A stretch of DNA of 64,000 nucleotides from Struthio camelus. Taxonomy: Eukaryota > Chordata > Aves > Struthioniformes > Struthionidae. The position numbers were made by a program, and so were the translations under genes. Each line of letters opens with the position of its first letter. The first letter of the stretch is position 1. Positions 1-15,200 of this stretch are shown here, one piece after another. The notes under the pieces are model-generated. The model was given only the letters and a program-made list of their open reading frames with translations. It was not told the DNA's origin and did not search any database. The stretch lies in contig NC_090968.1 in the NCBI RefSeq assembly GCF_040807025.1, positions 5,569,906 through 5,633,905 of the forward strand, in the 5' to 3' direction.

Positions 1-170
1 AACCCCGTCCCCGGGCCACGGGACCCTGTCCCGGGGCGCGGGAACCCCGTCCCCGGGCCACCGGCACCTACCTTAGAGCCCGGGATCCTTCTCCTAGGGC
101 ACACGACCCTGTTCCCCGGCCACGGGCCCTTGTTGTAAGGCCCAGGGCCCCCTCTCGGGGCCGGTGCCCC
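1..170. repeat. GC-rich short tandem repeat in FHIP2B intron 2
   Basis: The left edge lies in the second intron of FHIP2B. It holds two to three imperfect copies of a unit of about 44 bp built on the words CCCCGTCCCCGGGCCACGG and GACCCTGTCCCGGGGCGCGG, which then decay. No coding exon is visible in this stretch. Confidence 0.5.
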
Positions 171-176
171 ACTCAC

Positions 177-402
177 CCGTGGCCTCCAGGTAGTAGCCAG
201 TGATGCCCTTCCAGTGCTCGGTGAAGGCCTCCAGCAGGTCCACGCTGGGCTCCCGCTGCGCACACCGGGGCCGCGGTCAGGGGCGCCCGGAGCGCCCGGC
301 CCCGGCCCCGCCCGGCCCACGCGTGTCCCGGCCCCGCGCGTCCCCGGCCCCGCTCACCGCCTCCACCGCCTGCTGCAGCAGCGCGCCCAGGCGGCTCAGC
401 AT
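177..402 (-). CDS. FHIP2B: FHIP2B (FAM160B2), first two coding exons; rest off the left edge
   Basis: Two coding exons are visible. Exon 1 is 402-358: ATG, MLSRLGALLQQAVEA, donor GTGAGC. Exon 2 is 255-177: REPSVDLLEAFTEHWKGITG, then YYLEAT, donor GTGAGT. They join in phase. From memory they match the amino terminus of human FHIP2B (MLSRLGALLQEAV, then REPSIDLLQAF and EHWKGIT). The family comprises FHF-complex interacting proteins; relatives link dynein/Hook adaptors to vesicles, while the role of FHIP2B is less clear. The start is the first ATG in a CpG-rich exon. Human FHIP2B lies just downstream of DMTN in the same orientation; here an AFAP1-like gene lies between them. Identity is strong despite the short sample. 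The remaining exons are beyond position 1. Confidence 0.9.
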
Positions 403-654: not shown

Positions 655-1134
655 GCGCCCAGCGGGACAGGGAGATCCCCCTGCGCACCTGGCACCGGGA
701 CGGGGAGAGACCCCTGTGTGCACCTGGCACTAGAGTGGGGAGAGACCCCTGCGCACCTGGCACCGGGACGGGGAGAGACCCCTGCACGCACCTGGCACTA
801 GAGTGGGGAGATCCCCCTGCACACCTGGCACCAGGACGGGGAGAGACCCCTGCGCGCACCTGGCACCAGGATGGGGAGAGACCCCCCCCTGCACACACCT
901 GGCACCGGGATGGGGAGAGACCCCTGCACACCTCACACCAGGATGGGGAGAGACCCCTGCACACCTGGCACCGGGATGGGGAGAGACCCCTGCACACACC
1001 TGGCACCAGGAAATAGAGAGACCCCCATGCACACCTCACACCAGGACAGGGAGAGACCCCTGCGCACACCTCACACCGGGACAGGGACATCCCCTGCACA
1101 CCTCACACCGGGACAGGGAGAGACGCCCGCACAC
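655..1134. repeat. Minisatellite upstream of FHIP2B, unit about 31-35 bp
   Basis: About 14 imperfect copies of a unit containing GGGGAGAGACCCCTGCACAC followed by CTGGCACCGGGAT or CTCACACCAGGAT. Copies differ by short CA, GT or C indels, so the unit length varies and several frames stay open. It lies between the FHIP2B promoter and the 3' end of the AFAP1-like gene. It ends abruptly at about 1134. Confidence 0.85.
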
Positions 1135-2065: not shown

Positions 2066-5000
2066 TCACATGGCAGACTTCATCTCCCACTCCTGGAAAG
2101 CAGCAGAGTCAGGGCAGCTTCTGGCAGGACCTCTTGTGACCTCGTGCTGCACCCAAGTCACCTTAACTCTGCCCGCTTGCGACCGTCCCTAGTTTCCCAG
2201 GCTGCGCTGCTCGCTGCCTGCCCGCTCCCAGCCGTACCTTTCTCTTCTGCAGCACCTTCCCCTTTTCGATGATGACCACGGAGGGAGCTCGCTTCAGGGC
2301 GCTCTTCGTGGAGGCCGTGCGCTTCAGGAGCGGCGTGAGGAAAGAGCCCTGAGAGCAAAACCAGGGCGGGGAGAGGTCAGAGGGCGATGCCTGCTCTCCC
2401 TAACCCCGATGAGCAATGGACAGAGACTCCGCTGCCTTTCTAGCCCCCCTTTACACCCATGCAGCTTCCTACCCGGCAAAAGGCCCTACGCAGCCCTCCC
2501 CAGGCCATGCACGCCCCGGACCTTGTCACCGCGGCCCTCCTACCTCGGAGCCGGCCGAGCTCGTGGTGGCGGCTATGTGGCCCTTGAGCGACTTGCCGAG
2601 GGCCAGCAGGTTCATCTCGGAGCCGGCTTTCAGCCTGGTCTTCATGCGGCAGGCCCTCTCCAGCTGCCCCACCTTCTCCTCCAGCTTGGGGAAGGCTCTC
2701 TTCCCTGCAAGGGCAGCGGGGAGCCTGCGAGGCCCGCGGCACCCCTCTGCCCCGGCGCCAGCCCCGCTGGCTGCGCGGGCCAGGGAGAGGCACCCCTGCA
2801 CCAACCCTGGCACGTCTCGCCCGTTGCAGTCCTACCGATGAGGAAATCCAAGCCGTCCCGAGCCCCTTTGCTCTCGGGCAGCGTCAGCGTGCGCTGGGAC
2901 CGGAAGAAATCCCTGTTCTTGAGCTCCGGGCTCACCTCCGCCCGCTGCTGGCTGGCAGCCTTGCCCAGGCGAGGCGCAGCGGATGCTGGAGGAGGAAGGG
3001 CAGAGGAAAGAGTAGCCATGACACGGTGCTCTTGGACATCACATCCTCTCCCGGGACGTGCTGAGCCCAGCACGCAGGGCCGGTTTGCATGGGGTGCACC
3101 CATGCCCCGCAGGACACTGGACCCTCCTCACCTGCTTGCGATGGCACAGCACTGCCTGGAGCGTTGCTGTAGGCACCGGTGGGCACGGCGGACAGGGGTC
3201 TCCTGTGCTGCCTGTGGGCTGCACGGTCCAGGCTCTGCTGCTGCAGAAGGAAGCCCGAGAGAAGCCCATCAGCAAGCAGACGGAGAGCCAGCTGCCCTCG
3301 CCCTCGCCGGCCGGCCCCGCGACCCGCTCACAGCCCGGGGCGGCCGGAGGCATCGGCGGCGGTTACCAGCTGCTGCAGCCGCTCCGCGTTGGAGTAGACG
3401 GGGCCGGGGGACGTGGCTGGCGGGAGCTGCCCGAAGGGGTCGTCCATGTAGGCGTTGGGGGTTGGGAAGCGGCGCAGCAGCAGCCCGCTGCAAGCAGGAG
3501 CAGAGGCCACCCCGTCAGCGCCAGCAGCCCCAGGGCGGCGGCGCGGCCCCCCGGGAGCCGCGGGCAGGCCGAGGCAGCCCCACGGACGCCCCGCGGCCGG
3601 CGCTGCCTCCTTACCCTGCAGCCGGGGCGCTGCTGGCGTCCCCCAGCCTCGGCGTTTCCGCGCAGGTCCGGTCACAGGCGGGCTCCGCTCCTCCCCTGGC
3701 CCGCAGGGTCTTCAGCCAGGCCTCCCTCTCCTCGTCCGAGCGGGTCTGGCAGGCGGGAGGAGGGGGACGGGCTCGGGGGGGCCCCAGGGGCAGGCCCCCC
3801 CGGGCAGGGGGTGCACAGGACCCGGTGGAGGACGAGGACGGCCGCTCACCTCCAGCACAGCGAGCTCCTTGCCCCGCTGGGCGATGTGGATGCGGAGGCG
3901 CTGGGGGGTGGCGGCGGCGGCGGCCCCCGGCGTCACCTCGCAGCCCTCCAGCGGCACGGCGCACACGGGGCGCTGGGCGCCGCCGGGCTCGGCGAACATG
4001 CGCAGGGCGCCCTGCCGCACCGCGCACCACAGCCGCTGCCAGCGCCCGCTCAGCCGCACCGCCAGGAAGCCCCCCGGCCCCGCCGTGTCGCCCCCGGGCT
4101 CCCCGCCGCGGGCCGCCCCACGGGGCCGCCCCCGCTCCCCATCCCCGCCGGGAGCATCCTCCCCGGGCGGGGGGCCGTGGGCAGGGCTCCGCGGTGAGCG
4201 GTCCGAGTCCGAGTCCGAGCTGAGCCGCGGGCCGGCAGCCTGCAAAAGGAGAGAGGCAGGCTGAGCCGTCCCATCCCCGTCCCCACGGGGGTTTGGAGCC
4301 CCCTGCGCGCCACCGTGCCTCAGTTTCCCAGACGGAGACTAGCGACTCACCCTGCCGGGCCGCGAGGAAGGCGACGCCGGGAGGCTGTGGGCTGCCAGCC
4401 CGCTCGGAGAATTGCTGCTGACTTCTTCGATCACCTGCCGAGGGAGAGGGAGCGTCGCTGCCCCGGGCTCCCGCTCCCCGGGGCACAGCGCGGCTCCAAG
4501 CGCCGCGGGAGCGGGAAGGCAGCGGGCGATGGACGCGGCCGCCCCAGGAGGGCTGCGCCCCCGTTTCTCCGTGCCCCCCTCCCTCCCACCCCTGCAGAGC
4601 TCTGCCAGGCTGTGACACCTCCAAACCTTCCTCCAGTCCTCGGCCTGCTGCCGGCTCTGGAAGCCGATGACCAGGGCCTCGCCGGCCGTCCCCGTCACCT
4701 TCAGCTCGTGCTGCATCTTCTTGCCGGGCTTGGCCTTGTAGGCCACGCGGCAGCCCCGCAGGTCCAGCTCCAGCACCGGCTGCAGGTCCTTGGCACACTT
4801 GAAGCACTGCGGAGGCAGGGGGTGCGTGAGCGGCGGGCTGCCGGCACGGGGACGGGAGCGTGCCCCGGGCGAGCGGGCTGCTGGGGCGCAGAGCAGGGGA
4901 TGGGGGCAATTGGTGGGGTCGGGGATTTAGGGGTGCAGGCTGGGACGGTGCAGGGGACGGGTTCAAGGACGAACCCCGGGAGAGGAGGCGGCGTGGGGCT

Positions 5001-8000
5001 GGGGGACCCGCTGCCTCCCTCCGTGCCCTGCCTGCGGCCGGGCTCTCACCAGCAGCACGTGCTCCCTGACGATGAAGAGCTGCTTCGCCCACTGCCCCAG
5101 CCAGCGCTTCCTCCAGAGGAAACCGCAGAGCTGGGCCTCGGGGCGGGCTGGGGGGTCCGCGTCGGGGCCTGCAGCCGGCGGCCACCGCAGGTAGTGGGCA
5201 CGGTCCTTCACGCACTCCTCATCCTCCCCGTATGACTCGTAGTGGCTGCTGTCGCTGTCGGCACCGCCTGCTAGCCGGGGCAAAGGGGCAGCGTCAGGGC
5301 ACTGGGCGCACGGGGGTGCCGGGGACTGGGCACATCGGGGTGCTCACCGGAGTCGACGTGCCCTCCCGGGCTGACAGGCTCAGCTTCCTCGTAGGAGTCA
5401 TCGGCCGGCGGGCTCTGGGGGTACGGCAGGACGCCCGGCCCGTTGCTCTGGGGAGAGAAGGGGCGCTCAGAAGGCAGCGCCCCACGGGGTGCATCCCCTC
5501 CGGCTGCCTCGGTCCCTGCCCGTGGCGGCATTTGCCCCCTCGCAGCCAGCCCCGTGCCAGCAGCAGGGATGCTGCCCAGCCTTTTGCTCCTGGTGCCTGC
5601 AAGGGCGGGCGTCGCGGCGGGCCCCCGGGGCAGACCGAGGGCAGCACCAGGATGGCTGCGGAGCCAGGGCTCGCTCAGCCCAGCCCGCGGCTCCCGCTGG
5701 GCGCAGGGCAAGCGGGAGGAGGTGGGCGCTGCTGCCCACCCCGGGGCCCCTCCAGCTCCTCCTGGAGCTCGCGGCCGGACCACGCACCCTGCCTGGCCGA
5801 GGGCCCTGCTCCCACGGCCCCCGGCCACGCACTGGCTCTGTCCCAGGTGGCAGCCAGGGAGGGGGCAAGGCAGAGCGCTGTCCCCAGCCCCCGTCCCCTC
5901 GGTGACCTGAGCATGTGCCCTCCATCCCCTCCGCACCAGCTGCACTTGTGGCAGCCGCATGGGGACATCCTGGGGGACAAACGGAGCCGGGTCCCCGAGA
6001 GGCTGCCGGCGGGGCGGCTCGGACGCCAGCACTCCCCGGAGCTGGCAGGCAGCATGGGAACATTCCTGGCCCGGCCGGGCCCTCTGCGCTCCCTGTTCGG
6101 CACTCTTGGCGCGAGCGAGGCTGCAGCGCAGGGATCTCCGCCGGGTCCCCCTCTCTCACGCCCTGGCACCCTCCCGGCCCCGTGCCACCCGCCCTTACTC
6201 CAGCAGGTGAGCTCGGGGGTCTGGCCGGGGGGCACTCGCATGCTCTCCCTCCCAGCGCATCCGGAGTCCTGGATCCTGGGGGGAAAAGCAGGATTATGAG
6301 TAGCCCTTCCCCACTCCGCAGCATGGGCGCAGAGCTGGGCGTCCCCAGGTGAGACACCACTGCCCGCAGCGCGGCCACTCACCTGGCCGGGGGCCCAGGC
6401 TGGCCCGGCCCTGCAGGCTGCCGGTCCCCGAGGAAGGCGCGAGGCAGCGCATGATCATGTACTCGGCGTCCTCCGCTGCGGGGGGACAACGGAGTCACAG
6501 CCCGGCAGCTTGAGGCTGTCCTGCTCCTAGCACCCCGCCGTGCACCAGCACTGACCCAGCAGGGCACCCCCTCCCCGCCAACCCATCTGGGCTGGTCTAA
6601 AACTACCAGCCCAGGGCTTTGAGCTGGCAGAAATTGGGATGAAAGGCGGCAGGGAGAGGCAGGGGTCCTCGTGCTCCGAGGGGGGTCAGCTCCCATCGCA
6701 CCCTGCCCAGGCCACCCCTGCGCCCCTCTGGCCACGTGCTCACACGGAGGGCTCTGGAGCCTGGAGAGGAGGTCGGCCACCGACTTCTTCTTGGCCTGGG
6801 CCACGGCGCTGAGGTTCTCCCGGTCCAGGATGAGCAGGAAGGACCGCAGGTCCGAGAGCAGCTTGTCCAGATCTGCAGGGCACACGGACGTGTCCCCTCG
6901 AGGCCACCGCTGACGAGACCCAGGCAGGGATGCGATCCTGCCCCTGCCCCCCGCTCCTCCTTCGGCTGCTGGCGAGGAGACCGGCCGAAGCGGGGACGGA
7001 GGCGACGGGGGCTCCTGTGCCAAAGCTCTGCAGAGCCGAGGAGCAGGGACCGCAGCGGTGGCGGCTCCTGCCCCGTGCCGGCCGGCCGTGCCCCCGCTGC
7101 CCGCCACCTGCCCCGGTGCCCCACACAATCCCGTTATTGATGGGACTGGGGATGCCCGGGGCAGGGCGGCCGCGGGGGGGACCGAGGCCCCGCGGCACTC
7201 AAGGCCCCTCTGTGTGCATGCACAGAGCCGGCTTGTTCCCGGTCGGGGGCCGGCTGCGCCGCGCCGGCTCCGGGGGCAGCGGGAGAAGGGAGCTGAGGCC
7301 CGTCGCCCCGGCCGGCCGCGGGGGCGGCCGAAAGCACGGCTCCTTCGCCAGCACCCTGCGTGCCCGCTGCAGCGGGGAGGAGGGGGAGGAGGAGGAGGAG
7401 GAAGGGCGGATGGAAACAGCTGATGAAGGCTGCTCCGGGGCGTGCCAAAAATGCTGAGCATGCCCCCGCTGCCCCCTCCCGAGGGCAGGGAGCACCTCGG
7501 GCCCCAGCAAGGGCCTGGGGCAGCGGGCTCCCCGCTCCAGCATCAGCCCCAGCCGGGGAGCCCTGGCCCCGCCGAGCAATCGCGGCGGAGCGGGACAAGG
7601 AACTGCATTGTGCCCCCTCGCCCCCGGCGCCATCCCGCGGCCCCCGCCGAGGAGGGGGAGAGACCCGAAGGGCTGCAGGGCCTGGGGAAAGGGGCCCTCC
7701 GTCTCGCACGGCGGCCGCGTCTGCTTTGCGTCCGGGCAGGCATTTCCTGCGCTCGAGGCGCGCGTGGCAGCAGAGAGCCCCGCGCACAGCCCCGGCCCGG
7801 CCCGGTGCATGCCCCCTCCCTGCGCCGGCACAGCCCCCGGCACCTCCAGCAGCCGCGCGGGGAGCGGGGATGGGGCCGAAGCCCCCTGGCCGCCTGGCCC
7901 CCCCCGGGCCGCTGCCCGCCTCTCCCCGGCTCCTTCCTGCCATGCATCTGGAAGTGGTTTGCATCGCTCTTCTCCGGCCGCTCCGGGCTCTGCTCCCTGC

Positions 8001-10475
8001 TCCCAGCTGTGATAAAACGTTGCAGACCCGCTGTCGAAACCCACTGCCTCCTGGCGCGGGGCCAGGCCGGCCCTTCCCTCCGTGCCGTCCCCCCCAGCCA
8101 CCGTGCTCAGCTCGGAGAGTCCCTCCTTGCCTTCCCCCTACACTAAGCTGCAATTTCCCGCCTGGAAAAGGCCCAGCATCGAGACAACTGCAGCGAAGCC
8201 CTGGCCATCGCCTTCCTCCTGTCCCGCCAGGGCGAGCCCCAAAACACCCCAGGCTGCAGCCCGGCACCCCGAGCCAGGCTGGCATCGCCGCGCTCCCTCT
8301 GCATCCCTACAGCCGGGATGCATCCGGGCAGCGCAGACGTGACGCCCCTGCAAAGCCCTTCCAGACCCGTCACTAACAGGAGACAAACATCGCGAGGCCC
8401 CCGGGGAAGCAGAGGGGCCCCAGCGAGGCTGGCCAGGGGAGCACCCTGCTCTGCTCATGGGTGCAGGAGGAAGCACCCACGAGCGTGCACCACGTGGGTG
8501 CATGGGTGCCAGCTGGTCCCACGTGTGTCGCAAGGGACATGGGAGAAGCCCGTGCGGAGCTGCTGAGCACGCAGGAACGGTGTCCTCCCCCGGGCTCGCG
8601 CCTGCCGGAGCTGACCTAGGAAGCCTGACATCCTGGGCAGGGCTGGCCGGCCAGGGAGCGCATACGCACTGTCCCTGCCCGGGGGGAGCGAAAACATCTG
8701 GCAGGGCAGCGAGGCTGAGCAATGCCGGAGCTGGGCCCAAACATCTGGATATCCCTGGAAACTGGGGAGGGAAGGGGGGGACTAACTCCTGGCGCTTCCC
8801 GGGATGCTGGTGGGGGAGGCTGGGCACAAGGGCTGGCAGGAGATGAGCCGTGGGCAGAGTGCAAGAGCGGAGAGGCTGGGGGGGCCTGGGAATGGCCCCC
8901 GCTGCCCGTGCCCGGTGTGCCTGGCTCTTCCTCTCCCCTCCCTTTCTCCTCTCCTCCACCCAGGCCGAATTCCTCGGCTATGACATCTCCGTCCATCCGC
9001 TCCCCCTAGCCCTCTATCTGCATCTTGTGCTCTCCTGACCTCCCCCAGGCTCCCCCCGCCGCGGCAAGCCCCAGCGCCCGCATCCCCGCCGGCCAGCCCG
9101 CACCGGCAGCAGGGGCAGCGGCGCCTGGGGTGCTGGGTGGCCCCGTCGCCCGCGGAGCGGTGCCCGCGCCCAGCGCGGCGGGGTCTGCAGCTCGCCCCTG
9201 ACACCCCGCCAGCCGCAGGCTGCTGGGGCCAAGCAAATGCAGCGGAGATTAAAAACAGCTGCCTTAGTCTCCATGGTGAGAGGGAGCCGGGGAAGGAAAA
9301 CGCCCCCCAAACACACACGCGCGTCTCCTAGCAAAGCGCCCCGGTCCCCGCAGGCCACGGCCCCGCTGGCGCTGCATCCGGAGGCAGGGCACGGCCGCGG
9401 GCGCCCCGGATGCCACGCTGCCTGGCCGGCATGCCGCCGAGGCGAGGGCTCGCCCTCCGCACCGCGGGCAGGCGCGGAGCCCGGGCCCTGCACCCGCGGC
9501 CCCGGGGCACCCGCGGCCCAGGCAGCCCCGCGGCGGGCGGCCGAGCTCCAGCGCTCGGGGCTGCGCTCGCCAAGCGCCCGATGACTCAGAGGATGAGGCT
9601 CGACGCGAGGCCGTGGCAGAGCCTGGAGTCCCTCCTCTCGGCAGCGTGACCGCTCGGCCTCTCGGCCTCTCGGGGCCCCTCGCTGCGGGGACGGGGGCAT
9701 TTCCCCGGTGGCCGCTCCACCCCCAACGTGCCCCTTGCTGCTGCCAGGCAGGGTGCTGGCAGGGCCGTGGGAGAAGCTGGGGTGTCCCAGCGCCTGCACC
9801 CTGCCACGGCACCGTGCTGGGGTAGCACCGCAGCCTGCCTTGCGGGGGGGCACCCGGTGCCCGGGCACCCCGTGCACGCTTCTCCGCGCTCTTACACCCA
9901 CACCTTGTCCCCTGCCGCCTCGCACAGACGCCCCCCCCCCACCCCTTCCTCCCAGGAACCCCTGCCCATCCCCACAGCCCCGCTTCGCACATGCCATCCT
10001 CACACCCCTTCCCTGCGCCCCGCTCTCCCCCCTCTTCCCATGCACCCCCTTTCCCTTTCACCCCTCCTGCACCCCCTTGGCGAGCGCTCCCGCCGTCTGC
10101 ACCCTCTTGCACGCTCACACCCCACTGCACCCTCCCTGGGCACCCTCCCACCCCCTGCACACCCCCTTTGCGCTCGCTCCTCCCCCGTTTTCACCTTTTT
10201 ACCCCCTCGCACCCCTTTCACCCACCCTCGCACCCCTGCCGCCCCCGCCTTCGCGCACGCCCTCGCCCTGTTTTCACCTTTTTGGCGCGCCCACACGCCA
10301 GCCGCACCCGCTTGGCACACACCCGCCCTGCTCTCACCCCCTTTGCACGCTCGCGCCCCGCTGCATCCCTTCGCGCACGCTCTCGCCCTGTTCTCCCCTT
10401 TTTGCAGGCTCGCCCCCCCCGCTACCCCCGCTCCTCCTGCACCCCTCGCCCCCCGCTACCTCTCTGCCGGGCCAT
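2066..10475 (-). CDS. AFAP1-family actin-filament-associated protein, probable fourth ohnolog (719 aa)
   Basis: 17 coding exons join in phase with no stop: 10475-10460, 6872-6744, 6475-6383, 6275-6199, 5969-5907, 5447-5348, 5267-5050, 4806-4627, 4434-4351, 4239-3850, 3745-3615, 3487-3367, 3240-3132, 2985-2836, 2704-2544, 2348-2238, 2092-2066. The start MARQR-DLDKLLSDL mirrors the AFAP1L2 start MERYK-ALEQLLTEL, including the exon break. Then come an SH2-ligand-like YEEAEP (about residue 145), the acidic SHYESYGEDEE, PH1 at about 205-296 (LCGFLWRKRWLGQWAKQLF) and PH2 at about 375-470 (GRWQRLWCAVRQ). A short charged segment (LEEKVGQLERACRMK, about 625) replaces the long family coiled coil. The C-terminus GKVLQKRKEWEMKSAM matches the family end. 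Relatives crosslink F-actin and are Src adaptors. The paralogs are 730-818 aa. Exons 4 and 5 are the least certain, supported only by phase and splice sites. The symbol is left blank because human has no clear equivalent. Confidence 0.9.
9890..10450. repeat. C-rich degenerate tandem repeat in AFAP1-like intron 1
   Basis: A strongly pyrimidine-rich stretch on the plus strand with recurring words such as CACCCC, TTTGCACGC, TTTTCACC and CTCGCCCTGTT at loose 25-60 bp spacing. It ends about 10 bp before the first coding exon, so it lies at the start of intron 1. It keeps a plus-strand frame open for over 270 codons, but the translation is low-complexity and without splice context. Confidence 0.6.
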
Positions 10476-12278: not shown

Positions 12279-15200
12279 TCAGAAGAGGAAGGCTTTCTTC
12301 TTCAGCTCGTTGCGCTTCCACAGGGCCAGCTTGCTGAACTCCTCGGGGGACATCTCGAAGACCCGCAGGAAATCCTCGGGGGAGAGGTGCCGCTGGGGGG
12401 ACAGGCAGGGTCAGGGGGTGCCGGGGCCCCGCGCCCTCGCCCGCGCTCCTGCCCCGGCCTCAGCCCGGCCCCTACCTCTAGCCTGGTCCTGTCCACGCCG
12501 GGGGGCAGTTTCACACGGCCTCTGTTGGTCACCATCAGCATTTCGTAGGGGTAGATCTGCAAACCAGGGGAGGGCGGAGGCTGTAAGTCCTTCCTCTCTG
12601 CCTTCCCTCCATCCTGCCACCCCCGTCCATGCCCCCGTGGTCCCCAGCAGGCCCCCGGCCCCTCTTACCTTCTGCTCCAGCATGCTGGGCAGGGAGTTGC
12701 CTCTGTCCATGCGCCCGTGCTGGCCGTTCTGCAGGGACAAAGCCTAGCGTCAGCTCTGCAACGGGCTGCTCTCTCCCGCTGAACCAAAGCCAGGGTGATG
12801 GGCTCCAGCCCTGGCACTGGCATGCCATCCCTCTCTCCCTGCCCCAGTTTCTCCCTTCTTTGTCCCTCCGATGCCCCCCGGACCCCATTGGCAGCTGGCC
12901 CCGGTGCACCCCACTCCCGACCCTGGCATACGTCACCCTCTCACTGGGTCTCTGCGCCGGCAGCCAGGCGAGTGCTTACCTGCAGGCCTGGAAAGTAGAA
13001 AAAGCAGGGCTCAGAGCCAGGGACCCCTGCACGATGCCCTCCCAGGGTGCGGGGCAGCCGGTCCCCCCCCCGGCTGCATCGTCCGCCAGGGAACCAGAAG
13101 CCCCTTGGGGCAGCCCAGGCTTGCCCCAGCATCCCCCGTCCCGGGGACGTCCCCATGCCCTATGCTGCATGCTCACCTGGACTGCCCTTCTCGCTGCCTG
13201 CTGAGCTGAACTCCGCCGACTGCAGCTGCAGGGGAGAGGGGACAGCGTCAGAGCGACGCCAGGCGGGCCTCAGCGCCCAGACCCCGGCCACGGCCACCGT
13301 GCCCTGGCTCCGGGCAACCTACCCGGGTGAGGGTGCTCCTGCCGGACGCGGGCAGCGAGGAGCTCTTGTAGCTCCCCATGTGCAGAGCTGTAAGAGAGCA
13401 AGAGGCTGTCAGTAGGGATGTGGGTGGCCGGAGCAAAAGATGCTCCAGCAGGAGCGCAGGGCCAGGCCAGGCCATTAACCAGCAGCATGGGGCAGGGCAG
13501 GGATGGGGGAAGAGCTGGTTAGTGCTGGCACTGCTGGCAGGGCAAGCCGGTGCCAGGTGCCTGCGTCCCACGTACATGTGTGGAAGGGCGTCCGGTCAGG
13601 CAGCGAGCGGGTTTTCCTCCGGATGGGGAGAGATTTCTCCATCTCCTCCTTCAGGATCAGCTTCCCAAGGTTGGAGGTGACCTGGGGGCAAAGGAGCGTG
13701 GGGATCAGTGCCAGGACGTCCCTAGCCCATCGCACCGAGACCGTCCGCCCCACCGGGTCTGCCCTGCACCTTGCTCAGCTCCTGCCTCTGCAGCTCCCGC
13801 AGGTTCTTCATCTCCTCCGTGAGGTCCTCTTCCTCCTCCTCCCCTCTCTTGGAGGCCATCCGCTTCCTCCACTCCGTCTCTGGGGAAGAGAAGGGGACAT
13901 CATGCCTCGGGTGTCCGAGAGGACAGACCGGGCTGCCCTGCCATGGCCAGCCCCTCATGCCTGCACCCTCCTCCCGGTCCCCCACCTACCCACGACCGCC
14001 AGGGACGGGGGGCACGGCCAGTAGTCCGTCTCGATCTTGGCGGGCTGGTTGGGGTCCGGGGGCTGAGCCGCCGGGAACTTGGAGGATTCGATGATCAAGT
14101 CCTCTATGAGGTGCTTGCCATGGTGGGCGCCGGGGTGGTGCTCTGCGTGGGACAGGGCAGCGGAGGCGGGTGAGGCCGGACCCCACGGCGCTGGGCTGCC
14201 CCGAGGCCGCCGGACAGCAGCCCCACACTCACCTTTCTGCTTGTAGATCGGAGGCTTCTTGTATATGTTCAGCTCCGTCGTGTCGGTCTCTGCAGCGGGG
14301 AAGGGGTTTGGGGAGCAGACCGGTGAGAGTGGTCCCGGGGGGAAACGGCCCCAGCGCCCCGCAGAGCTTCCCGCCTCAGCCCAGTCTGCCCAGTTGCCCT
14401 CCCCGGGGGTGCTGGGGCTGGGAATCGCGCGACGGCAGCCCTGCAGGGCTCCGCTGGGGTTGCGGGCGGCGGGCGAAGCGGGTGCCGAGCGGGCGTACCG
14501 GGGCGGTGGAAGTGCTGCACGCTGCTGCGGGCCGCGGTGCCGCCGTGGCGCGGGGCGCTCTGCGCGGCGCTCCCCGGGGACCGGCTCTCCAGCCATTCCC
14601 GGACGACCTGTGGGCGAGCGGAGCCGGTGAGGAGCCGAGGGGGCACCGCGCGGCCCGGGGCGATTCGGCAGCGCGCCTGCTCGCCCGCCCAGCCTCCTCG
14701 GGGCGATGCTGTGCTCGAGCCCCAGCAGCCCCGAGGCCGGTGGCCGCTCTCGCAGTCCGGCGGGGGAGCCGCACGGCCCCGGAGCGGCGGCAGTGGCGGA
14801 GGGCCGGCTGGCTGCGGATGCCCCATCGCCCTGCGGGGAGCCGGCTGGGCTACCTCGGGCCCGGCATCCCCGGCTCAGCACAAGCGGTGCCAGTACTCAC
14901 CTCTGGAGATGGAGGAGGAGAGATGGATTTAGGCGACAGGGAGCGCTGCGGAAGGCAAAAAGCATTTTATTGCAACCCAAGTGCAAAGGCCGTGCCCCTG
15001 GACAGACACCGTGCCCTCTCCATCCGGTCGCTCCGGGGCAGAGCAGGGCTTCCCCCGCCGGCCGGCAGCGCGGAGGACTGGGGGGACGCGGGGTGGCGCA
15101 AGGGGGAGGCCTCTCCGCCCGGTGCCCGCCCGAGGCACCCTCACCTCTCGGCTCCGGGGCAGCTCCACGTGCTCCATGAGCGAGTAGGTGAAATGGGGTT

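What the first reader, a model, noticed from the sequence alone, without database searches (positions are those of the whole stretch)
2066..10475. An intact fourth AFAP1-family gene downstream of dematin: a probable lost ohnolog
The sequence shows a 17-exon, 719-aa frame with both PH domains, the family N-terminus with the same first exon break as AFAP1L2, and the family C-terminus. It sits on the same strand directly downstream of DMTN. Established: the human AFAP1, AFAP1L1 and AFAP1L2 genes each lie directly downstream of ABLIM2, ABLIM3 and ABLIM1, and DMTN shares the headpiece and linker with the ABLIMs. FGF8/17/18 and NPM1/2/3 follow the same genome-duplication pattern. Inference: this is the fourth copy of the ABLIM-AFAP1 pair, removed in the human lineage between DMTN and FHIP2B.
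Basis: partly seen in the sequence, partly recalled or inferred. Interest (0 to 1): 0.88.

Follow-up and report, generated by a model that had tools for sequence, protein, structure and literature searches.

The report
A fourth AFAP gene, beside dematin
The ostrich carries an intact fourth member of the three-gene AFAP signalling-adaptor family, next to the dematin gene, that is shared with sharks, fish, salamanders, turtles and crocodiles but was not seen among mammals, and that databases mostly label with the name of a sister gene.

Summary
On the minus strand at 10475-2066 lies a complete AFAP-family gene. My model has 16 coding exons and 698 aa (not 17/719), all GT-AG, directly downstream of DMTN and upstream of FHIP2B. 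The database ostrich protein (P0001) is identical except at splice choices. The same genome holds AFAP1, AFAP1L1 and AFAP1L2 on three other contigs. All four AFAP genes lie downstream, on the same strand, of the four ABLIM/dematin headpiece genes. In a 30-row tree the fourth clade (sharks to ostrich) has 100/100 support, and the unrooted split is AFAP1+AFAP1L1 | AFAP1L2+fourth. This supports a lost 2R ohnolog, mostly named AFAP1L2, AFAP1L1 or "AFAP1-like" in databases. Of 120 listed homologues (233 matched), none is mammalian, squamate or frog.

Most likely function: a membrane-recruited tyrosine-kinase/PI3K adaptor like XB130 (AFAP1L2). Tyr54 and Met57 of the YxxM motif are invariant in 32 of 32 aligned orthologues; the C-terminal coiled coil looks mostly lost. 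Function is inferred, not tested.

Novelty: new member of a known family. The gene models exist in databases; my paper searches found no recognition of a fourth paralogue.

The parts
10460..10475 (-). coding exon 1 (MARQR + 1 nt), phase 1
   Evidence: P0001 starts identically
6744..6872 (-). exon 2, N-terminal helical region (DLDKLLSDLRSFLLILDRENLS...)
   Evidence: intron phase after it matches the paralogues
6383..6475 (-). exon 3, carries EDAEYMIM (YxxM, Tyr54)
6199..6275 (-). exon 4, variable linker
5348..5447 (-). exon 5, carries DDSYEEAEP
5050..5267 (-). exon 6, DSDSSHYESY and first half of PH1 (P0001 starts it 3 nt earlier)
4627..4806 (-). exon 7, second half of PH1
4351..4434 (-). exon 8, inter-PH linker (P0001 extends it to about 4340)
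3850..4239 (-). exon 9, linker and first part of PH2 (P0001 starts it near 4218 and leaves out about 75 nt inside it)
3615..3745 (-). exon 10, end of PH2
3367..3487 (-). exon 11, RRFPTPNAYMDDPFGQL
3132..3240 (-). exon 12
2836..2985 (-). exon 13, at the place of the paralogues' first coiled-coil exon, little coiled-coil likeness left
2544..2704 (-). exon 14, LEEKVGQLERACRMKTRLKAGSEMNLL, likely remnant of the second coiled-coil exon
2238..2348 (-). exon 15, LLKRTAS...VLQKRK
2066..2092 (-). exon 16, EWEMKSAM and stop
12282..12389 (-). DMTN (dematin) headpiece, last coding part of the upstream neighbour
   Evidence: further DMTN exons to about 15.3 kb
1..402 (-). FHIP2B, first coding exon from 402 and second exon; downstream neighbour continuing out of the window
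   Evidence: name from recalled sequence

Best explanation
This is the fourth AFAP-family gene of jawed vertebrates, an ohnolog of AFAP1, AFAP1L1 and AFAP1L2 made by the early vertebrate genome duplications and kept beside dematin, itself the fourth ABLIM-type gene. It was not seen in mammals and is presumed lost there. Its protein most likely works like AFAP1L2/XB130: a cytosolic scaffold whose two PH domains bring it to membranes and whose N-terminal tyrosines (Tyr54 in a YxxM motif, YEEA, YESY) are phosphorylated by Src-family or receptor tyrosine kinases, recruiting the PI3K p85 SH2 domain and other SH2 proteins. It seems to have lost most of the C-terminal coiled coil, so it probably does not dimerise or cross-link actin as AFAP1 does. 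Shown: gene, orthology, synteny, motif conservation. Inferred: lipid binding, phosphorylation, p85 binding, loss of actin cross-linking.
For: Intact 16-exon frame, matching the NCBI model but for splice choices. AFAP matches on four contigs of the own genome, C4, C13, C7 and C27 (31 matches), each gene downstream on the same strand of an ABLIM/DMTN headpiece: C4 75065432, C7 10105691, C13 7697107, C27 5582187; these are 4 of the 7 headpiece hits, and the other 3 lie on C6 and C2, where no AFAP match was found. Headpiece best PDB matches: ABLIM2 2.5e-19 for C4, ABLIM homologue 1ujs 7.8e-20 for C13, ABLIM2 2.9e-15 for C7, dematin 5.5e-15 for C27. Introns of the same place and phase in 4 of 4 paralogues at four places. 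Tree with 100/100 for the fourth clade, and AU tests. Tyr54 and Met57 invariant in 32 of 32 orthologues. YxxM in the first 160 aa in 94 of 120 hits; of the other 26, 8 carry it further in, 10 begin at the Met inside the motif and 8 lack that region; it is in 0 of 120 AFAP1/AFAP1L1-type hits. XB130 Tyr54 in YxxM is the p85 site (PMC4068053, passages). Two confident PH folds, an N-terminal helical pair, and a C-terminus predicted disordered apart from one short helix (residues 479-495).
Against: No expression, binding or knockout data. No invertebrate root, so '2R' rests on synteny and on the presence of sharks, not on a rooted tree. The tree's AFAP1, AFAP1L1 and AFAP1L2 rows are amniotes only. 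All four bird rows of the fourth clade have a skewed composition. The intron before PH2 that the three paralogues have (phase 1) is missing in the window gene's model. The coiled-coil loss is weakly measured: helix propensity and charge fall, but a crude heptad score (0.30) does not separate it from AFAP1L2 (0.31), and no AFAP1L2 model was predicted as a control. The chicken model (P0092) is short and divergent, so constraint may be relaxed in some birds. Mean pLDDT is 54.9, so only the domains are trustworthy.
Confidence: 0.86

Rival explanations
1. It is simply AFAP1L2 (or AFAP1L1), as many database names say, moved or misassembled in this genome.
For: Most source names are 'AFAP1-like 2', 'AFAP1-like 1' or 'AFAP1-like'.
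Against: AFAP1, AFAP1L1 and AFAP1L2 are separately present on C4, C13 and C7. Only 32-34% identity to each of the three in ostrich. Grus americana has both genes under one name, on contigs of 6.3 Mb (P0008) and 41.6 Mb (P0256). Own clade 100/100.
Confidence: 0.01
2. A lineage-specific duplicate of AFAP1L2, made in tetrapods or sauropsids and moved next to DMTN.
For: AFAP1L2 is its partner in the unrooted tree and shares the YxxM site.
Against: The clade contains sharks, ray-finned fish, coelacanth and salamanders in an order that broadly fits the species tree, with some forks unresolved. Tetrapod fourth + AFAP1L2 as one clade is rejected (p-AU 4.6e-75). The same-strand position behind a headpiece gene repeats in all four copies.
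Confidence: 0.02
3. A real fourth paralogue, but from a local or segmental duplication of an ABLIM-AFAP block rather than 2R whole-genome duplication.
For: No invertebrate root is available here, and PMC4906994 (section 6 read) also could not date the AFAP expansion for lack of invertebrate members.
Against: Four blocks on four contigs with the same order and strand. [quoted passage not shown]
Confidence: 0.06
4. An intact-looking but dispensable or decaying gene, retained in some lineages only.
For: The chicken model P0092 is truncated and divergent; no mammal, squamate or frog among the 120 listed hits.
Against: Full-length models in sharks, fish, salamanders, turtles, a crocodilian and many birds (81 of the 120 listed proteins are from birds, several per species; hand tally). 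Motifs invariant over 32 rows. Full-length frames on short fish-like contigs.
Confidence: 0.05

Closest known systems
AFAP1L2 / XB130
   Same: Two PH domains, N-terminal helical region, YxxM at Tyr54, YEEA and YESY tyrosines, EWE C-terminus, shared intron places and phases, position downstream of a headpiece gene; its partner in the unrooted tree.
   Different: 33% identity over aligned residues in ostrich; C-terminal coiled coil mostly lost by crude measures; no intron before PH2; downstream of DMTN rather than an ABLIM gene; not seen in mammals; no SH3-type proline motif identified by eye.
AFAP1
   Same: Family architecture and gene structure.
   Different: AFAP1 has a leucine zipper and actin-binding domain (PMC4068053, section 6 read), and none of the hits has an N-terminal YxxM.
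AFAP1L1
   Same: Family architecture, intron phases, position behind an ABLIM-type gene.
   Different: The tyrosine site reads YMYV in ostrich, not YxxM; coiled coil kept.
Dematin (DMTN) as fourth ABLIM-type gene
   Same: The neighbouring copy of the linked gene family; headpiece and linker conserved.
   Different: DMTN is well known and kept in mammals (recalled); its AFAP partner was not seen there.

Membership tests
AFAP family | Two PH domains | tested here: met
   Pfam PH, 2 stretches, 8e-19; 2cof match 9e-10; two confident PH folds. The own-genome PH-family search (150 of 204 candidates scored) did not list this gene, whose PH domains are split over exons
AFAP family | Conserved N-terminal region and SH2-binding-type tyrosine motifs | tested here: met
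   Alignment A2, invariant Y54, Y124, Y149, Y152; binding not tested
AFAP family | Family intron positions and phases | tested here: met
   Same place and phase in 4 of 4 genes before the YxxM or equivalent region, before the YESY region, after PH1 and after PH2; in 3 of 4 between the coiled-coil exons; inside PH1 and PH2 the automatic models agree only in part; the paralogues' intron before PH2 is absent here
AFAP family | C-terminal leucine zipper/actin-binding domain (AFAP1, AFAP1L1) or coiled coil (AFAP1L2) | tested here: not met
   Exons at the same place exist, but helix propensity and E/K/R content fall (1.06 and 0.31 against 1.14-1.15 and 0.45-0.51); heptad score 0.30 against 0.31-0.41; tail predicted disordered apart from one short helix. 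The feature differs among accepted members, so it lowers likeness rather than kinship
AFAP family | N-terminal SH3-binding proline motif | tested here: inconclusive
   No clear equivalent by eye in A2; no motif test run
2R ohnolog quartet | Each copy linked to the same neighbouring family, on separate chromosomes | tested here: met
   4 of 4 in ostrich, on four contigs
2R ohnolog quartet | Split before jawed-vertebrate radiation | tested here: met
   Three sharks inside the fourth clade, 100/100; shark members of the other three clades not sampled
2R ohnolog quartet | Split after divergence from invertebrate chordates | not tested
   No invertebrate outgroup obtained
PI3K-recruiting adaptor | YxxM bound by p85 SH2 after phosphorylation | not testable with these tools
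   Motif present and invariant; binding needs an experiment

The most novel reading that the evidence does not exclude
A fourth AFAP paralogue present in sharks, bony fish, salamanders and archosaurs is a PI3K-recruiting tyrosine-kinase adaptor freed from actin and dimerisation, and its absence from mammals (and perhaps squamates and frogs) means part of XB130-type signalling in many vertebrates has no mammalian counterpart and has been attributed to AFAP1L2 through mislabelling.
Probability: 0.4. Interest if true: 0.65.

Novelty: new member of a known kind. Interest (0 to 1): 0.55.

Why it matters
A review of the family counts three members (PMC4068053, section 6). A fourth, old member completes the ABLIM-AFAP pairing in all four paralogous regions, corrects names in many bird, reptile, fish and shark genomes (where studies crediting AFAP1L2 may concern this gene), and offers a natural comparison: which XB130 functions need the YxxM site and which need the coiled coil.

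Tried and rejected
Rejected: AFAP1L2 or AFAP1L1 under a correct name; late duplicate of AFAP1L2; pseudogene (see rivals). Pairing the fourth clade with AFAP1L1 or with AFAP1 instead of AFAP1L2 is disfavoured (p-AU 0.0010 and 0.0011). Eight paper searches: 'AFAP1L3' 0 papers; AFAP1L1+AFAP1L2+ohnolog 0; XB130/YxxM/p85/PH domain, 3 of 4 terms, 37, 8 listed, for function; AFAP1L2/ABLIM1/paralogon, 2 of 3 terms, 14; AFAP1L2/DMTN/FGF17/FAM160B2/FHIP2B, 2 of 5 terms, 12; 'actin filament-associated protein 1-like' + 'lost in mammals' 0; AFAP1/L1/L2/vertebrate/gene duplication, 4 of 5 terms, 2, neither opened; dematin+ABLIM+whole genome duplication 0. No listed title or abstract start speaks of a fourth AFAP gene; only open-licence PMC papers are searched. 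Opened: PMC4906994 (passages, section 6), PMC4068053 (passages, section 6), PMC6233590 (passages). The supplementary AFAP tree of PMC4906994 was not available, so I cannot say whether it contains the gene. Not answered: FGF (PF00167), nucleoplasmin (PF03066) and LIM (PF00412) searches of the own genome.

The absence claim for mammals, squamates and frogs rests on the 120 listed of 233 matches (113 unseen; only 7985 candidates were scored). Hand tally of the 120 proteins (several per species): birds 81, ray-finned fish 14, turtles 9, sharks 7, salamanders 3, crocodilians 2, caecilian 1, coelacanth 1, unnamed 2. Squamate and mammalian proteins are in the database; that frog proteins are was not checked.

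Full report
What is there. On the minus strand between 10475 and 2066 I could build one open frame of 16 coding exons, 698 codons, all introns GT-AG. The NCBI ostrich protein P0001 aligns with no differences except where splice choices differ: one added residue at exon 5/6, and other boundaries around exons 8 and 9. That identifies the window as ostrich and shows the gene is already in public annotation, named 'AFAP1-like 2'. The coding GC is 71% and GC3 88%. The neighbours are DMTN (headpiece at 12282-12389, minus), FHIP2B (start at 402, minus) and, further up, FGF17 at about 27.4-29.4 kb (FHIP2B and FGF17 named from recalled sequence).

Is it a separate paralogue? A search of the whole ostrich genome with AFAP1 gave 31 matches on four contigs and no others: C4 (AFAP1, up to 96% identity to the mammalian query), C13 (AFAP1L1), C7 (AFAP1L2) and C27 (the window). 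The three known paralogues were read nearly whole. The window protein is 33%, 34% and 32% identical over aligned residues to ostrich AFAP1L2, AFAP1L1 and AFAP1. In a tree of 30 rows (17 fourth, 5 AFAP1L2, 4 AFAP1L1, 4 AFAP1; 26 picked by me from 360 database hits plus four ostrich genes) each group is one side of a branch with 100/100 support, and AFAP1+AFAP1L1 are split from AFAP1L2+fourth at 100/99. AU tests reject a tetrapod-only origin from AFAP1L2 (p 4.6e-75) and disfavour the two other pairings (p about 0.001). The root was not inferred.

Synteny. A headpiece (PF02209) search of the ostrich genome gave 7 hits. Four lie on the same strand upstream of an AFAP gene: C4, 66 kb before AFAP1; C7, 70 kb before the first AFAP1L2 exon found; C13, 25 kb before AFAP1L1; C27, 1.8 kb before the window gene. 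I did not check for other genes inside the three longer gaps. Best PDB matches are ABLIM2 for C4, an ABLIM homologue (1ujs) for C13, ABLIM2 for C7 and dematin for C27. The other three hits (C6, C2, C2) have no AFAP match on their contigs. The pairing thus repeats four times out of four, which is the strongest evidence for an ohnolog quartet. PMC4906994 (section 6) had placed the ABLIM and AFAP families in a 2R paralogon, with PDE6 genes on human chromosomes 4, 5 and 10 and a quartet of regions, without being able to date AFAP; DMTN does not occur in its main text, and the section read names no fourth AFAP gene.

Gene structure. Four introns have the same place and phase in all four ostrich genes: before the YxxM or equivalent region (phase 1), before the YESY region (phase 1), after PH1 (phase 0) and after PH2 (phase 2). 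The junction between the coiled-coil exons (phase 1) agrees in three of four, the AFAP1 model there being unreliable. Against full agreement, the phase-1 intron before PH2 of the three paralogues is absent in the window model.

Distribution. Among the 120 best of 233 matches I tallied by hand proteins from birds 81, ray-finned fish 14, turtles 9, sharks 7, salamanders 3, crocodilians 2, caecilian 1, coelacanth 1, unnamed 2; no mammal, squamate or frog. A mammalian or squamate orthologue of ordinary divergence should have ranked above fish, so absence is likely but not proven. The human DMTN-FHIP2B adjacency is recalled, not tested. A similar pattern (kept in sauropsids, amphibians and fish, lost in mammals) is published for npm2a of the same conserved region (PMC6233590, passages).

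How it probably works. Alignment A2 (32 orthologues chosen of 120) keeps Tyr54, Met55 and Met57 without exception, and also Tyr124, Tyr149 and Tyr152. The corresponding Tyr54 YxxM of XB130/AFAP1L2 is the p85 SH2-binding site after Src or RET/PTC phosphorylation (PMC4068053, passages). A YxxM within the first 160 residues occurs in 94 of 120 proteins; of the other 26, 8 have it further in, 10 start at the Met inside it and 8 lack that region. It occurs in 0 of 120 proteins, which are AFAP1 and AFAP1L1 type by name or rank. AlphaFold, run on P0001 with A2, gives an N-terminal helical pair (2-45), two confident PH domains (about 185-280 and 328-420) and a largely disordered tail; 2cof, a human AFAP1L2 PH domain, is among the PDB matches (rank 9, TMt 0.77). 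At the place of the paralogues' coiled-coil exons, helix propensity and charge have fallen, though a crude heptad score does not separate the window gene from AFAP1L2. I therefore infer a PI3K/SH2 adaptor at the membrane, probably without AFAP1-type actin cross-linking. Binding and phosphorylation are not shown.

Expression. I had no RNA-seq. Two unnamed homologues, closest to ray-finned fish, are complete 599-residue frames on 2410- and 2780-base contigs; for a gene of this exon structure that suggests spliced RNA, or less likely a processed copy.

Verdict.

Noticed in passing
window 663-1134: Minisatellite with a unit of about 35 bases (about 14 copies, 79% matches; also read as a 68-base unit) between FHIP2B and the gene's 3' end.
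   Followed up: no
P0092 (Gallus gallus): The chicken orthologue model is short (513 aa), lacks the YxxM region and has a divergent PH2, so the gene may be decaying or misassembled in chicken.
   Followed up: no
window exon 15 (2238-2348): The tail motif LLK/RRTASAKS..LKR.PS, including an RRTAS-like basophilic kinase site (recalled consensus), is conserved from sharks to ostrich; its function is unknown.
   Followed up: no
window exons 8-9 (about 4069-4351): The NCBI model and mine disagree on splice sites in this GC-rich linker; the NCBI model leaves out about 75 nt just before PH2.
   Followed up: partly
G000 C7, C13 and C27 AFAP loci: Ostrich AFAP1L1 carries YMYV where AFAP1L2 has YIYM and the window gene YMIM, so the tyrosine may be older than the PI3K-type Met.
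   Followed up: partly
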